Part shown: positions 18,556 through 27,461 of the stretch, in pieces | How the letters are laid out: each line of letters begins with the position of its first letter | Position numbering within the stretch: position 1 is the stretch's first letter | Assembly (NCBI RefSeq): GCF_030717995.2 | Contig: NZ_CP157743.1 | Location: 3,622,501 to 3,686,500 of the forward strand | Direction of reading: 5' to 3' | DNA length: 64,000 bases | DNA from: Methylomarinum sp. Ch1-1 | GTDB taxonomy: Bacteria > Pseudomonadota > Gammaproteobacteria > Methylococcales > Methylomonadaceae | Program-made: the position numbers and the translations under genes | The notes under the pieces: generated by a model | Seen by the model: the letters and a program-made list of their open reading frames with translations, nothing else | Told to the model about the DNA's origin: nothing | Databases searched by the model: none

Positions 18556-19254
18556 ATGTGGAACACTGCTTCATTATTCAGGCGAAGTCTGATCCCACTG
18601 TTATGCCTATTGCACACGGCAAATCTCGATGCGGCGACGGCGCCCCTTGAAGACGCTGTTTTTTCAGACGACTCGACGACGGCGCTGGTTTTCAAGTCCG
18701 AAGATAGCGTCGAGCGATTAAACGAACCATTTCCCAGCAGCAATCATCACCGCATTTCCAATTCCCTACCCCAGTCTTCTTCATTTTCTCGAAAAACGAT
18801 CCCACCGCCTTCCGCCGATGTCGTCAAACATGGTTATGAAAAGCTCAATGCACTATTCGCAGATGATACTTTGGATGAGGCGGTATTGATCGTGAAAGAG
18901 GTCAATGAGGATTTAAACCGCCTGAACCAAAACATAGAACAGCAACTCGCACCGGCGATGGGACAACTCTTCATTATACAAGACTTGTTTGCCGCAACCG
19001 GCGAAGACAATCTTATGCCCTCATCATTTCAAGCCCCGTCGACAGCGAACATCGGACTGTCGGCAGGCGACCCTCTCGAAAGCCTCGATTTGGAGGACAT
19101 CGCTTACGATGAATCGGACAGTTTTTTTGCCTGGTTATTGAAGTTGCCGAGCTACCTGTTCGACATCGAGAACCTGATCATCCTCGGCATTTCGTTGTTC
19201 TTATTAACGGGTTTTTTCAAGGTCGTCCATTATGTCGTCAACAGAATCTATTGA
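18556..19254 (+). CDS. Bitopic envelope protein of unknown function
   Basis: The 232-aa product has an N-terminal signal sequence (cleavage plausible near NLDAATA, about residue 26), a periplasmic Ser/Pro-rich and then helical Asp/Glu-rich region, and a C-terminal membrane helix LIILGISLFLLTGFF (about 207-222) with a short basic tail. I do not recognise the family. It ends 7 bp inside the Wzz-like gene on the opposite strand, so the two overlap tail to tail. Together with its neighbours it suggests a small cell-surface locus, an inference. Confidence 0.7.
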   Translation: MWNTASLFRRSLIPLLCLLHTANLDAATAPLEDAVFSDDSTTALVFKSEDSVERLNEPFPSSNHHRISNSLPQSSSFSRKTIPPPSADVVKHGYEKLNALFADDTLDEAVLIVKEVNEDLNRLNQNIEQQLAPAMGQLFIIQDLFAATGEDNLMPSSFQAPSTANIGLSAGDPLESLDLEDIAYDESDSFFAWLLKLPSYLFDIENLIILGISLFLLTGFFKVVHYVVNRIY

Positions 19255-21221
19255 GGACCGCAGACCGGATGGACCAACTGAACATCACCCAGCTCGCAAC
19301 CTGTTCCGGACGGTGAAAACTCTCCGTACGCGGCCAGTTCCAGCGGCGCTAGCGGGCCGACGACTTTCGCCAGCAAGCTCAGCCGCAAACCCTGCTCAAC
19401 CAGAAAAATTATATAAGACTGTCTTAGCGTCTCGGCCAATTCATCCCCCATTTCACTAAAACCGGAATCGACGCTGACACAATAAAGCATCGCCTTCAGG
19501 TCATCGACCTCGAGATAGTGCCGCAAGGCCCATAGCGTTCCCGACTCGACCGCCTTGCGCATCACCTCTTGCAAACGTTTGCCGATCTTGATGACTCTGG
19601 CTTTTTTTCCGCCGACCACAATTTTTGCTCGTTCCAGATCGACTCGCGCGTAGGTCAGATCGACGATTTCATCCAGTGTCAAACCGCTTAACAGCAACAA
19701 GATCAATTGTTCGCTGTCTTCATCGGCATGCTCCAATAGCCTTTCAATTTGTTGATTGGACAATGGCTGGTAATGGGGAACCTGGGGCAAAGCGGTGCGA
19801 GGTCTTTGTTCGACGATCTTATCCTGCTGATAATTATCAAGATTTTCTTTAGGCGGCGTATAGCCGAACCAGGCTTGCAGCGGAAAAACAAAATGACTCT
19901 GCTCAGGCTGCCCCCGACTGAGAAACTCGACCAGCCAAACGGTGAAAAACGCGATCAGCAACGCGGCGATAAAAGCAATCAACGCGCCCAGTTGATAATC
20001 GGGACTAATCGCCTGCCAATTGACGCTGGCCCGTTCCACGATGTCAACCTGAGGGTATTTCTCATACTGTTTGCTTTCGATTTTGACCAAGCGGTCCCGC
20101 GTTTCCCGTTGCAGCTCTTCCAGCGCGGTCAAGTCTTCCATCAATTTTTCATGACGCGAAAACAAACTGGTGAATTCCGCCGCTTTCGTTTTATGTTCGT
20201 CTAGTTGCTGCCTGAGATCTTTGACGACTTGTTGGGCCGCATAATAATCCTGTTTCGCCTCGGTCCAAACCACTTTTTTTCCGACCTGCCGTTTGTTGTT
20301 GATCTCGGCTTCCAACTGCTTGATTTGTTCGGGAATGAATTTCAACGACGGCTGCAACGCCAAATATTCACGCGTATAGCGTTTATCGAATTCGGCTAGC
20401 TTCTCTTTAAGCTCTTGATAACGACGCTCGAGGTTGCTTAAGCTACGCTGCTCCTGTTCCGGGACCACGGCCTCGCCATTAGAGATCGCCTGATTAACGG
20501 CTTCAAGTCTGGCCTTGGCCTTGACCACCTCTTCATTAGCGTTATTTAAGGCTTGGGTCAAGCCATTCAGTTTCGTTAATGATTCGTTTTCCTCCCGGGC
20601 GATCGAACTGATATCGTGAGCTTTTCTGAATTGATCCAGATCCGCTCTGGCCTGTTCGACCTTCGAGTCTAATTCTTCCAGTTCGCTGCCGACCAAGGTC
20701 TTGGTATTATGAGTCGCATTTTCAACGCTCAACGCACGCGCCTCGAGATAGACGTCAATCCAGGTATTGATCACCATTGGCAGAACTTCCGGCTGCGCGC
20801 CCCGGGCCAGCATGCTCAATAAATTAGTCTGTTCGATAGGTTCGACGGTCAACATCGTGCGAATATCGGCTAATGTCAATTCCGCTAATTGCGGATCTTT
20901 CGTTTGATGCAGACGGTTCAGCGTTTCGTTGAGCAACTCGTGACCCAGCAGCTTCTGTTTCTGGATCGCGACATGTTGAAAATCGACATCGCGACTGACT
21001 TGATCGATCGCCGTGGCCGCCGAAGTCAATAGCGTTGCGCTGCTTTGATACTGTGCCGGGCGAGCGAAATTGATCAACATGCCGAATGCCAGACATATGA
21101 CAAAGGTCGGCACGAATATTTTCAGTCTAGAGCTTATCCTATGGTTATCGGATGGCGTTTCGGGCCCGCTAAACTGTCGTTCTTGTTGAGATAAATACTC
21201 AATTTGTGGCTGCTGTTTCAT
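19248..21221 (-). CDS. Wzz/GumC-type chain-length regulator with degenerate tyrosine-recombinase-like C-terminus
   Basis: The 657-aa protein has the polysaccharide co-polymerase architecture: TM1 at about 34-52, a periplasmic Wzz domain with coiled coils (about 170-390) and TM2 at about 410-432. Instead of the usual short tail or BY-kinase, the cytoplasmic portion (434-657) contains a region that follows the catalytic domain of XerC/D: SGLTLDEIVDLT at 512-523, VGGKKARVIKIGK at 536-548, ETLRQS at 597-602, LLAKVVGP at 616-623 and Tyr632. The Arg-I, HxxR histidine and final His/Trp positions are replaced by Thr515, Glu597 and Pro623, so catalysis is unlikely; Arg600 and Tyr632 remain. Known Wzz proteins set polysaccharide length; the extra domain is unexplained. 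Confidence 0.8.
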   Translation of the reverse strand: MKQQPQIEYLSQQERQFSGPETPSDNHRISSRLKIFVPTFVICLAFGMLINFARPAQYQSSATLLTSAATAIDQVSRDVDFQHVAIQKQKLLGHELLNETLNRLHQTKDPQLAELTLADIRTMLTVEPIEQTNLLSMLARGAQPEVLPMVINTWIDVYLEARALSVENATHNTKTLVGSELEELDSKVEQARADLDQFRKAHDISSIAREENESLTKLNGLTQALNNANEEVVKAKARLEAVNQAISNGEAVVPEQEQRSLSNLERRYQELKEKLAEFDKRYTREYLALQPSLKFIPEQIKQLEAEINNKRQVGKKVVWTEAKQDYYAAQQVVKDLRQQLDEHKTKAAEFTSLFSRHEKLMEDLTALEELQRETRDRLVKIESKQYEKYPQVDIVERASVNWQAISPDYQLGALIAFIAALLIAFFTVWLVEFLSRGQPEQSHFVFPLQAWFGYTPPKENLDNYQQDKIVEQRPRTALPQVPHYQPLSNQQIERLLEHADEDSEQLILLLLSGLTLDEIVDLTYARVDLERAKIVVGGKKARVIKIGKRLQEVMRKAVESGTLWALRHYLEVDDLKAMLYCVSVDSGFSEMGDELAETLRQSYIIFLVEQGLRLSLLAKVVGPLAPLELAAYGEFSPSGTGCELGDVQLVHPVCGPQ

Positions 21222-21523
21222 AGTCTATCCCCGGTTGCGGGCATGTTGGACGCTACACGACTCAAGCACAGTAACTATTCAGCATTCGGAACGCTTCCTT
21301 GCCCTGCCTCATTCGCACGGTCCATGCCCGACGCACAAATAGCGTCTGCGACAACAGAGCCACCGCGTGGGTGGAAATGCCGGTTCTGCAATCAGCTCAA
21401 TAAGTCAGCGATCAAACTGCTGTTAAATCATTTTGCTAAATAGCTACTCAAAACAAGTTGACCAGTGCGTTTATAGTCAGTTGTGAAATCTATTATGATA
21501 GTGTATTGCTTACGATAACCTTT
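21222..21523. other. Divergent intergenic region
   Basis: About 300 bp separates the divergent Wzz-like and sulfatase-modifying-factor-like genes. I see no gene, repeat or convincing operator; it should hold both promoters, the stretch from 21420 to 21500 being AT-rich. Confidence 0.5.
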
Positions 21524-22663: not shown

Positions 22664-25166
<2,503 letters not shown>

Positions 25167-25256
25167 TTTTGTCTGTCTCTCTCGCACAAAACGCCCCACA
25201 AGGTGGAGCGTTTCAGTCACTGCTTAATATGAATGGTTTAAACCATTCCCGCGCTA

Positions 25257-26114
25257 TTATTTCTGATTCTTGAAATACCTGAAGAAATCAGAATCAGGTT
25301 CAAGCACCAGCATATCGCCAGAACCTCTGAAGGTCTGCTTATAGGCCTCCATGCTGCGATAGAAGCTATAGAACTCGGCATCCTCGCCATAGGCTGTGGC
25401 GTAAATATCGGCCGCTTTCGCATCGCCTTGACCGCGCAGGATCTCGGCGTCGCGGAAGGCGTTCGCCAGAATGATTTCGCGTTGCTTGTCGGCGTCGGCG
25501 CGGACGCGTTCGGCCGCTTCAGCCCCTTGAGAGCGGAATTCGCTCGCGACTCTTTCCCGCTCCGCTTCCATCCTTCTGTACACCGAGGAACTGACATCGG
25601 GCGGCAAATCAATGCGTTTCACCTGGACGTCGATAATGTCTATGCCGTAGTTTCTTGCGACCGGTTCCACACTGTCAATCAAGGTTTGACTGATAAGTTG
25701 ACGATCGGTGGACACCAATTGCTTGATCTCGCGTTTACCGAACTCGCTGCGGCTGGCGTCCTTGACGATCTGGTCCAGGCGGATATTCGCCTGATTGATG
25801 TCGCCGGCGACCGAGGTGTAAAACTTTTTCACATCGTCGATGCGCCATTTGACGAAAGAGTCCACCATGACGTTTTTCTTTTCCGCGGTCAAAAAACGCT
25901 CCGCTTTCGAATCCATCGTCAAGATGCGGGCATCGAACTTCTTAACATTGTTGATGAATGGAATCTTGGTATGTAGCCCCGGTTTGAAATCCACTTCGAC
26001 AATCTCACCAAGACGGAACTTGATCGCTCTCTCGGTTTCCTTCACGGTGAATACCGACATTGACAACAAGATAATCAATGCGGCAGCAATCACTAAAATT
26101 TTATTAAATCCCAT
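25257..26114 (-). CDS. hflC: Membrane protease modulator HflC
   Basis: A stomatin/prohibitin (SPFH) family protein of 285 aa with one N-terminal membrane anchor (about 6-22) followed by the SPFH domain and a helical region. With HflK it forms a large cage around FtsH, restricting its access to membrane substrates. A single base separates it from hflK, so the two are translated together. Confidence 0.95.
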   Translation of the reverse strand: MGFNKILVIAAALIILLSMSVFTVKETERAIKFRLGEIVEVDFKPGLHTKIPFINNVKKFDARILTMDSKAERFLTAEKKNVMVDSFVKWRIDDVKKFYTSVAGDINQANIRLDQIVKDASRSEFGKREIKQLVSTDRQLISQTLIDSVEPVARNYGIDIIDVQVKRIDLPPDVSSSVYRRMEAERERVASEFRSQGAEAAERVRADADKQREIILANAFRDAEILRGQGDAKAADIYATAYGEDAEFYSFYRSMEAYKQTFRGSGDMLVLEPDSDFFRYFKNQK

Positions 26115-26115
26115 A

Positions 26116-27306
26116 TCAGCGCCCTCTCACATCACGACCCCGACTCGAGGTTCTCAGGTTATTGTTCACTATCTGTGTCGATTTTGGCGTAAAACTACTC
26201 GCCGGCTCGACACTGGATGATTGCGCCTGCACATTGGGTCGCTTGCTCATTTTATCCAAGGGCAAATAAAGCAAGTTGTTTCCACCTTTAACATCGACCA
26301 TGACCGTATCGGTATTGGCCAGTACATGTTCCATCGATTCTAGATAGATCCGCTGCCGGGTCACTTTCGGCGCTTTTTTGTATTCCTCCAGTATCTGGGT
26401 GAAACGGCTCACTTCACCAGTAGCCTCGGCGACCACCTGGCTTAGATAACCTTCGGCTTCCTGAACTCTACGTGAAGCGGCGCCGCGGGCCTTAGGGATC
26501 ACGTCATTGGAATAGGCTTCGGCTTCATTGATCAGGCGCTGTTTGTCTTCCCGCGCCTTGATGGCGTCTTCGAAAGCGCTCTGGACCTGTTCGGGCGGCT
26601 GGGCATCTTGCAGGTTGACACTGGTGATCAACACCCCGGCCTTGTAGGCATCCATGACTTCCTGAATTTCTTTCTTGATTTCCAAAACGACTTCGCTGCG
26701 CCCCTCCGTCAACACAAAATCCATGTTATTGTTGCCGACGACGCCACGCTCGACGCTTTCGGTCACTTGTTTCAAGGTCGCCAACGGATTCAGCACATTG
26801 AAGGCAAAATCCTTGGCGTCTTTAACCTGATACTGAACGGCAAGGCGCACATCGACGATATTTTCATCTTTGGTCAGCATCAAGGCTTCCCTGGGCACTG
26901 ACCCCATGCCCTGGCGGCCGCCGGAACGGTAACCGACTTCGATAAAGCGTTGCTTCATGATATCGATGACCTGCACCTGTTCTATCGGCGCCGGCAAATG
27001 CCAGTTCAAACCCGACTGCGTCGTCTCCGTATAAGCGCCGAAACGCGTCACGACGCCCTGGGTTCCCTCATCGACTATGTAAAAACCGCTTAAGCCCCAT
27101 ATCGCGAGTACGGCGGCGATAATAAAACCCAAACCTTTCATCGATGAACCGCCAGCGGGACCGCCACCGCCGGAACCGCCGCCAAATATTCCGCCTAATT
27201 TTTCTTGTAAAGAACGAATTGCTTCATCAAGGTCTGGCGGGCCATTCTTATCGTTACGACCACTCCAGGGATCTTTATTGCCGCCACCGGGCTCATTCCA
27301 GGACAT
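26116..27306 (-). CDS. hflK: Membrane protease modulator HflK
   Basis: The start is taken as the ATG at 27306 (MSWNEPGGGNKDPWSG), giving 396 aa; a TTG two codons earlier is weaker. The Gly-rich cytoplasmic N-terminus with GGGSGGGGPAGG, a membrane segment (about 60-80) and the SPFH domain starting VVTRFGAY are typical. The C-terminus beyond the SPFH domain contains a Ser-rich disordered tail. HflK and HflC are stoichiometric partners. Confidence 0.95.
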   Translation of the reverse strand: MSWNEPGGGNKDPWSGRNDKNGPPDLDEAIRSLQEKLGGIFGGGSGGGGPAGGSSMKGLGFIIAAVLAIWGLSGFYIVDEGTQGVVTRFGAYTETTQSGLNWHLPAPIEQVQVIDIMKQRFIEVGYRSGGRQGMGSVPREALMLTKDENIVDVRLAVQYQVKDAKDFAFNVLNPLATLKQVTESVERGVVGNNNMDFVLTEGRSEVVLEIKKEIQEVMDAYKAGVLITSVNLQDAQPPEQVQSAFEDAIKAREDKQRLINEAEAYSNDVIPKARGAASRRVQEAEGYLSQVVAEATGEVSRFTQILEEYKKAPKVTRQRIYLESMEHVLANTDTVMVDVKGGNNLLYLPLDKMSKRPNVQAQSSSVEPASSFTPKSTQIVNNNLRTSSRGRDVRGR

Positions 27307-27461
27307 ACTCAATGCTCCAATTGGATGTTTTATAAAATATCATTATGATTTTTTCCCTATCGCGTTAGTCATATTGACTTTCCCGTCAATAAAACAGGCC
27401 TCGGCCTAAAAAGCTTTATTCTATCGCAAATTAACAATTTCTTATCAATTAACTGAGAAAT

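What the first reader, a model, noticed from the sequence alone, without database searches (positions are those of the whole stretch)
19248..21221. Polysaccharide co-polymerase fused to a catalytically dead tyrosine-recombinase-like domain
The protein has a normal Wzz/GumC architecture up to TM2 (about 432), then a cytoplasmic region whose motifs follow the XerC/D catalytic domain in order and spacing: GLTLDEIVDLT (box I), VGGKKARVIKIGK (beta-hairpin lysine), ETLRQS (box II), LLAKVVGP and a terminal Tyr632. The 19 positions LSLLAKVVGPLAPLELAAY match the XerC pattern ending in the nucleophile. Arg-I, the box II His and the final His/Trp are lost (Thr515, Glu597, Pro623). A recombinase fold recruited to the cytosolic face of a sugar-chain-length regulator, in the place of a BY-kinase, is to my knowledge unreported. 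It might bind DNA, or be an adapter that lost DNA binding.
Basis: partly seen in the sequence, partly recalled or inferred. Interest (0 to 1): 0.78.

Follow-up and report, generated by a model that had tools for sequence, protein, structure and literature searches.

The report
Sugar-chain regulator with dead recombinase tail
A bacterial membrane protein of the kind that controls how long surface sugar chains grow carries, inside the cell, a domain descended from a DNA-cutting recombinase that has lost its catalytic residues and its positive charge and seems to have been reused for another job, in many methane- and ammonia-oxidising bacteria.

Summary
Observation and fold assignment hold. The 657-aa ORF (minus strand, 21221..19248) is a two-TM, Wzc/GumC-like polysaccharide co-polymerase (PCP) followed, after a disordered linker, by a tyrosine-recombinase catalytic fold. 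The AlphaFold model of the tail (pLDDT 91) matches XerA, XerH and IntI4; the family profile hits XerC-like 4a8e at 4e-11; HHalign against 16 XerC/D of kin genomes gives 97%, E 8.6e-11. The fusion is no accident: 78 genomes aligned here carry it, mainly methanotrophs (Methylococcales) and Nitrosomonas/Nitrosospira. The domain is a pseudo-enzyme throughout: box I Arg 0 of 78, box II His 0 of 78; box II Arg (68) and Tyr (65) mostly remain. It is acidic (median pI 4.9 against 9.6 for XerC/D, ranges not overlapping), so DNA binding is unlikely. No match to this genome's Wza or tyrosine kinase lies near it in 100 context loci, though a glycosyltransferase does in ten. Best mechanism, inferred only: a scaffold/oligomerisation module at the cytosolic base of the PCP ring, where Wzc has its kinase. 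Seven literature searches aimed at such a fusion, in open-access text only, found no paper.

The parts
19248..21221 (-). whole fusion gene, 657 aa, ATG start, stop included
   Evidence: full-length homologues
21063..21146 (-). first membrane helix (model helix, residues 26-53)
   Evidence: secondary structure; TM role inferred from the Wzc/WzzE fold match
19998..21062 (-). periplasmic PCP domain with long coiled coil (residues 54-408)
   Evidence: TIGR03007 E 1.5e-18, below equivalog cut-off; Foldseek Wzc, WzzE, KpsE
19917..19997 (-). second membrane helix (residues 409-435)
   Evidence: invariant P407, Y409
19794..19910 (-). disordered linker (residues 438-476, pLDDT under 50)
19251..19772 (-). 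tyrosine-recombinase-fold pseudo-enzyme domain (residues about 484-657)
19677..19679 (-). Thr515 in place of the box I catalytic Arg (0 of 78 family members have Arg)
19431..19433 (-). Glu597 in place of the box II His (0 of 78 have His)
19422..19424 (-). Arg600, the retained box II Arg (68 of 78)
19353..19355 (-). Pro623 at the third catalytic His/Trp place (His in 9 of 78)
19326..19328 (-). Tyr632 at the nucleophile place (Tyr in 65 of 78)

Best explanation
Shown: by fold and family the protein is a polysaccharide co-polymerase whose cytosolic tail is a catalytically dead, acidic tyrosine-recombinase catalytic domain, kept across many genera. Inferred: the domain works as a protein scaffold at the cytosolic base of the PCP ring, where Wzc carries its kinase domain, and controls assembly or partner binding without phosphorylation. 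A recombinase catalytic domain is suited to this because recombinases assemble by passing a C-terminal helix to the neighbour, and XerA is proposed to switch that helix between cis and trans. So the tail would make or break subunit contacts under the membrane ring and so tune a Wzy-type polymerase. Which sugar polymer it serves is not known.
For: PCP part: TIGR03007 and EpsF family matches, below their cut-offs, A3 profile to Wzc 5e-12 over 287-512, full-length model to Wzc, WzzE, KpsE. Recombinase part. Dead in all: 0 of 78 box I Arg, 0 of 78 box II His. Kept by selection: 77 full-length homologues at 34-52% identity to the window protein, with residues nearly fixed in the family but different in XerC/D: Y603 78/78 (Xer Phe 18/18), Q610 77/78, P637 76/78. 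Charge reversal against DNA binding: pI median 4.9 (4.4-6.6) against 9.6 (7.2-10.3) in 18 XerC/D. XerC over its cut-off and a second full-length Xer of 302-317 bits (presumably XerD, not tested with the XerD model) are also present in 10 of 10 fusion genomes tested. Precedents: EcpK, a dead kinase proposed as scaffold for a PCP-2 (PMC12004946, abstract and introduction read); XerA alphaN helix switch (PMC3646895, abstract read). Wzy_C hits, a family that includes O-antigen ligases (recalled), in 10 of 10 fusion genomes tested.
Against: No oligomer was modelled and no partner found. In the monomer models the C-terminal tail is well ordered, which fits cis packing as well as a switch. The recombinase alphaN helix is reduced to short turns in the model, and HHalign stops at residue 625, before the Tyr and tail. 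The gene is not beside an export locus: 0 of 100 context loci match the Wza or kinase of this genome, so even the PCP role rests on fold and family only. One orthologue (G016, L025) lacks the domain, so the domain is not always needed.
Confidence: 0.45

Rival explanations
1. The domain still binds DNA and ties the polysaccharide machine to the chromosome or acts as a membrane-bound DNA-binding regulator.
For: Same fold as MrpR/YopR and SroF, dead recombinases listed in the fold search; MrpR binds DNA (PMC10516654, abstract). Box II Arg (68/78) and Arg542 (78/78) are kept.
Against: All 78 domains are acidic, pI at most 6.6, net charge median -8, against pI 7.2-10.3 for XerC/D. The N-terminal core-binding domain of recombinases is absent: the tail begins near the catalytic domain after TM2 and a disordered linker. 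A hairpin Lys is not conserved.
Confidence: 0.08
2. The old active-site pocket binds a small anionic ligand (nucleotide, sugar nucleotide or phosphorylated partner) through the kept Arg542 and Arg600, making the PCP a sensor.
For: R542 is fixed in 78 of 78 and R600 kept in 68 of 78 although the catalytic set is broken; Y603 and Q610 are family-specific and near-invariant.
Against: R542 is also invariant in the 18 XerC/D and may be structural; ten members lack R600, and the distant L132 lacks R542. No ligand evidence.
Confidence: 0.2
3. The domain is a docking site for a partner that normally meets recombinases, such as FtsK gamma or XerC/D, linking sugar export to cell division.
For: XerD-FtsK gamma (5dcf) is among the fold matches; fusion genomes keep true Xer recombinases.
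Against: 5dcf ranks 16th, and no residue of an FtsK contact was tested. Genome context gives no link.
Confidence: 0.07
4. The tail is a vestigial passenger left after a chance fusion.
For: It can be lost: orthologue L025 ends about 50 residues after TM2, with no domain found in the locus.
Against: 25 of 27 close orthologues in 61 genomes encode it (in G029 behind a stop), one lacks it, one is cut by a contig end. Family-specific residues are nearly fixed. The 78 aligned genes are open throughout.
Confidence: 0.08

Closest known systems
PCP-2a proteins, Wzc type (PCP plus BY-kinase domain in one chain)
   Same: Two membrane helices, long helical periplasmic domain, a folded cytosolic domain after TM2
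   Different: Cytosolic domain is a recombinase fold, not a P-loop kinase; gene is not in an export locus
EpsV-EcpK of Myxococcus xanthus (PCP-2 with a pseudokinase partner; PMC12004946, abstract and introduction read)
   Same: A dead enzyme on the cytosolic side of a PCP, proposed to work as a scaffold
   Different: EcpK is a separate kinase-like protein; here the pseudo-enzyme is in cis and of another fold
XerA / XerC / XerD tyrosine recombinases
   Same: Catalytic-domain fold and box order
   Different: Catalytic residues lost, charge reversed, no core-binding domain, membrane-anchored
MrpR (YopR) of SPbeta, dead recombinase repressor (PMC10516654, abstract read)
   Same: Recombinase fold without recombinase activity
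   Different: MrpR is a DNA-binding repressor of a prophage; this one is acidic and part of a membrane protein

Membership tests
Polysaccharide co-polymerase (PCP) | two TM helices flanking a large helical periplasmic domain | tested here: met
   model; Foldseek to Wzc, WzzE, KpsE; Wzc profile match. No TM predictor was run.
Polysaccharide co-polymerase (PCP) | gene linked to a Wzx/Wzy polysaccharide locus | tested here: not met
   0 of 100 context loci match Wza or BY-kinase of the own genome at 1e-6; Wzx/Wzy themselves were not sought in the flanks; PCPs can be unlinked, so this lowers rather than excludes membership
Polysaccharide co-polymerase (PCP) | controls polymer length | not testable with these tools
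   needs a mutant
PCP-2a | C-terminal BY-kinase domain | tested here: not met
   tail is recombinase fold; no kinase family among the hits for the tail alone
XrtA chain length determinant (TIGR03007) | score over the equivalog cut-off 278.85 | tested here: not met
   66.4 bits; the true one, 434 bits, lies in the XrtA locus of the same genome, L187
Tyrosine recombinase fold superfamily | catalytic-domain fold | tested here: met
Active tyrosine recombinase | R...K...HxxR...H/W...Y catalytic set | tested here: not met
   box I Arg 0/78, box II His 0/78; hairpin Lys not conserved
Active tyrosine recombinase | N-terminal core-binding DNA domain | tested here: not met
   catalytic domain follows TM2 and a disordered linker
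MrpR-like DNA-binding pseudo-recombinase | binds DNA | not testable with these tools
   acidic charge argues against it

The most novel reading that the evidence does not exclude
A kinase-independent class of polysaccharide co-polymerases whose ring is assembled and released by a retired recombinase domain swapping its C-terminal tail between neighbours, the cis-to-trans mechanism proposed for recombinases on DNA, now used to control a sugar polymerase, and passed between methane and ammonia oxidisers.
Probability: 0.2. Interest if true: 0.9.

Novelty: new variant of a known kind. Interest (0 to 1): 0.74.

Why it matters
PCP-2 proteins are thought to need a tyrosine kinase, or a pseudokinase, to cycle between oligomeric states (PMC12004946). 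A conserved family with a wholly different cytosolic domain would show another way to run that cycle and a new use of the recombinase fold: not DNA cutting, probably not DNA binding, and inside a membrane protein. It occurs in Methylotuvimicrobium buryatense and in Nitrosomonas europaea, so it can be tested directly.

Tried and rejected
DNA-binding reading: rejected as leading idea by charge. Chance motif match: rejected by shuffles, fold and profile comparison. Fusion by assembly or frame error: rejected, 78 genomes. XrtA chain-length determinant of this genome: rejected, a separate TIGR03007 protein at 434 bits lies beside Wza and a BY-kinase elsewhere. Replacement of XerC: rejected, XerC over its cut-off in 10 of 10 genomes tested. 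Free-standing copy of the domain in the own genome: none; the three other hits at E up to 0.001 are about 60-residue pieces at 4e-7 or weaker. Strict link with the Wza export pore: not found; 4 of the 27 orthologue genomes have no Poly_export hit (G004, G005, G023, and G037, whose orthologue is cut before the domain). G005 is 99% and G023 98% complete, and these two have no BY-kinase hit over the cut-off. For comparison 8 of the other 34 genomes have no Poly_export hit. A link with hflKC-hisZ-purA was followed and left open. The first genome-contig scan, with the single protein, found nothing.

Full report
What is there. The finding lies on the minus strand: one ORF, 21221..19248, 657 codons. 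In the window it has no operon partner: the neighbours on either side are on the plus strand, a formylglycine-type (PvdO/EgtB-like, below cut-offs) protein at 21458 and an ORF without Pfam match at 18556. The own genome has 4.77 Mb in 3 contigs. Its nearest named row in the tree is the methane-oxidising endosymbiont of Gigantopelta aegis, so it is probably a methanotroph of the Methylococcales (inference).

The PCP part. The N-terminal two thirds match the XrtA chain-length family at 1.5e-18, EpsF and the exopolysaccharide transport family, all below their curated cut-offs. Pfam Wzz is seen in 5 of 22 homologues at E up to 0.01. A profile of 78 full-length proteins hits Wzc at 5.3e-12, residues 287-512 against Wzc 302-533. 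The full-length model (pLDDT 83.6, pTM 0.46, so domain placement is unsure) gives Wzc as its first ten Foldseek matches, and also WzzE and KpsE; XerA is eleventh at 1.2e-5. TM-scores for the PCP matches by query length are low (0.2-0.3), as one may expect of a flexible coiled coil.

The recombinase part. The tail alone matches NCBIfam XerA at 5.7e-8 and XerC/XerD models at about 4e-5 to 1e-4, all below equivalog cut-offs. Pfam Phage_integrase is 0.0015 for the window and reaches 1.1e-8 in the family, 54 of 78 members at E up to 0.01. The family profile hits solved recombinases: XerC-like 4a8e 4.3e-11 over 7-181 of 190, IntI4 1.1e-10, XerD 3.8e-7. The model (pLDDT 91.2, pTM 0.87) matches tyrosine recombinases, or the dead-recombinase repressors MrpR/YopR/SroF, in all 50 listed rows of 226 matches; 13 have E up to 0.001; best XerA E 7e-6, TM 0.67 by query length. 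HHalign against 16 XerC/D of kin genomes: 97%, E 8.6e-11, 146 columns. Shuffle control: best of 1560 shuffles 7.2 bits, family median 12.6, weakest member 4.5.

A pseudo-enzyme. Against 18 XerC/D: box I Arg 18/18 there, 0/78 here (T 46, S 23, D 5, K 2, N 1, L 1). Box II His 18/18 there, 0/78 here. Box II Arg 68/78, third His 9/78, Tyr 65/78. The hairpin Lys column is a gap in all 78 by MAFFT; HHalign instead puts window Lys539 there, but only 15 of 78 have any Lys in the five residues before Arg542. Arg600 and Tyr632 are both kept in 58 of 78 and both lost in 3. Eleven further copies, including two distant ones (L131, L132) and the second copies L050 and L189, also lack box I Arg and box II His (11 of 11); of these L050 and L189 lack Q610, and L012, L050 and L189 lack P637. 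New near-fixed features among the 78 are Y603, Q610, P637. The domain is acidic in all 78.

Spread. Of 61 genomes (own and 60 relatives), 27 have a close orthologue, E under 1e-60; 25 of them encode the recombinase part (G029 split by a stop), G016 lacks it, G037 is cut by its contig end. In a class-wide sample, 4 of 274 genomes at E up to 1e-20: the own genome, one of its family, and two distant ones. So the family is uncommon outside its main groups. In the named collection 117 stretches encoded a relative and 80 were kept: 30 Nitrosomonadaceae, 29 Methylococcales, 4 Chromatiales, 1 Pseudomonadales bin, 1 Acidobacteriota bin, 15 unplaced. The 78 rows of A2/A3 are the window and 77 of these 80. 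In the tree (quick method, SH-aLRT only) Nitrosospira and Nitrosovibrio genes sit inside a clade with Methylobacter genes (100) and Nitrosomonas genes in another place; starred branches force at least 2 changes for Nitrosomonadales. Transfer is the simple reading, but paralogy is not excluded.

Context. In the 100 loci L031-L130 (11 genomes appear twice; 71 of the 99 with a called gene have more than 5 kb on both sides) no match to the Wza or BY-kinase of the own XrtA locus was found at 1e-6; distant forms may be missed. Neighbours differ by lineage: PEP carboxylase and a DUF3482 GTPase in Nitrosomonas, SNF2 helicase and a TIGR04283 glycosyltransferase in Methylobacter kin, an ABC transporter in Methylothermaceae. 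The glycosyltransferase follows the gene on the same strand in 10 loci (7 genomes); among the neighbours that I annotated it is the one sugar-related gene that repeats. About a third of genes have a same-strand neighbour within 150 bases (30 of 92 upstream, 32 of 92 downstream). Wzy_C hits occur in 10 of 10 fusion genomes tested, including G005 and G023, which lack Wza and a kinase over the cut-off. So a Wzy partner is possible and Wza seems not to be required.

How it may work. The introduction of PMC12004946 (read) states that Wzc kinase domains form a ring and that phosphorylation breaks the octamer; its abstract proposes that the dead kinase EcpK is a scaffold for its PCP. The abstract of PMC3646895 (read) says that XerA's C-terminal helix packs in cis and is proposed to switch to trans to hold the dimer. 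Joining these, a retired recombinase domain could supply ring contacts under a PCP. This step is inference and untested.

Print. Ten searches of the open-access library were made. Seven for such a fusion gave 0 papers with all terms. One on PCP and BY-kinase and two on recombinases gave background, seen as listings; none of the listed titles or abstract starts reports this fusion. The recombinase survey PMC8138268 holds none of the six terms I looked for, fusion, membrane and polysaccharide among them (term search only). Subscription papers and domain-architecture databases were not searched, so it may stand in a database unremarked.

Noticed in passing
window 22664-27312 and L192:8825-12862: hflK-hflC-hisZ-purA lie upstream of the fusion on the same strand in the window (also near it in L031); HflC and HflK genes (over cut-off) lie directly upstream of the distant fusion in L192; hflKC is within about 10 kb in L043/L115 (one genome seen twice). 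Loose, could be chance.
   Followed up: partly
L192:13267-14337: Near the distant fusion copy is a gene like the hydroxylase beta subunit of soluble diiron monooxygenases, E 1.9e-44, below the cut-off.
   Followed up: no
L050, L189: Two genomes of one genus (G010, G036) hold a second, divergent fusion copy, 34-35% identical to the window protein.
   Followed up: partly
L025: Orthologue in G016 ends about 50 residues after TM2: a natural PCP without the recombinase domain.
   Followed up: partly
L026: Copy in G029 is split by one TAA; described only.
   Followed up: no
L107 and L111: A Sedimenticola bin and an Acidobacteriota bin carry closely related copies with short branches (0.048 and 0.033), which may mean a mis-binned contig.
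   Followed up: no
window 18556-19254: Convergent 232-aa ORF beside the fusion, overlapping its end by 7 bases, has no Pfam match at 0.001.
   Followed up: no
G001: One relative has 15 equal-scoring places of a recombinase-like ORF of 250 aa, most followed by an equal second piece: likely a mobile element.
   Followed up: no
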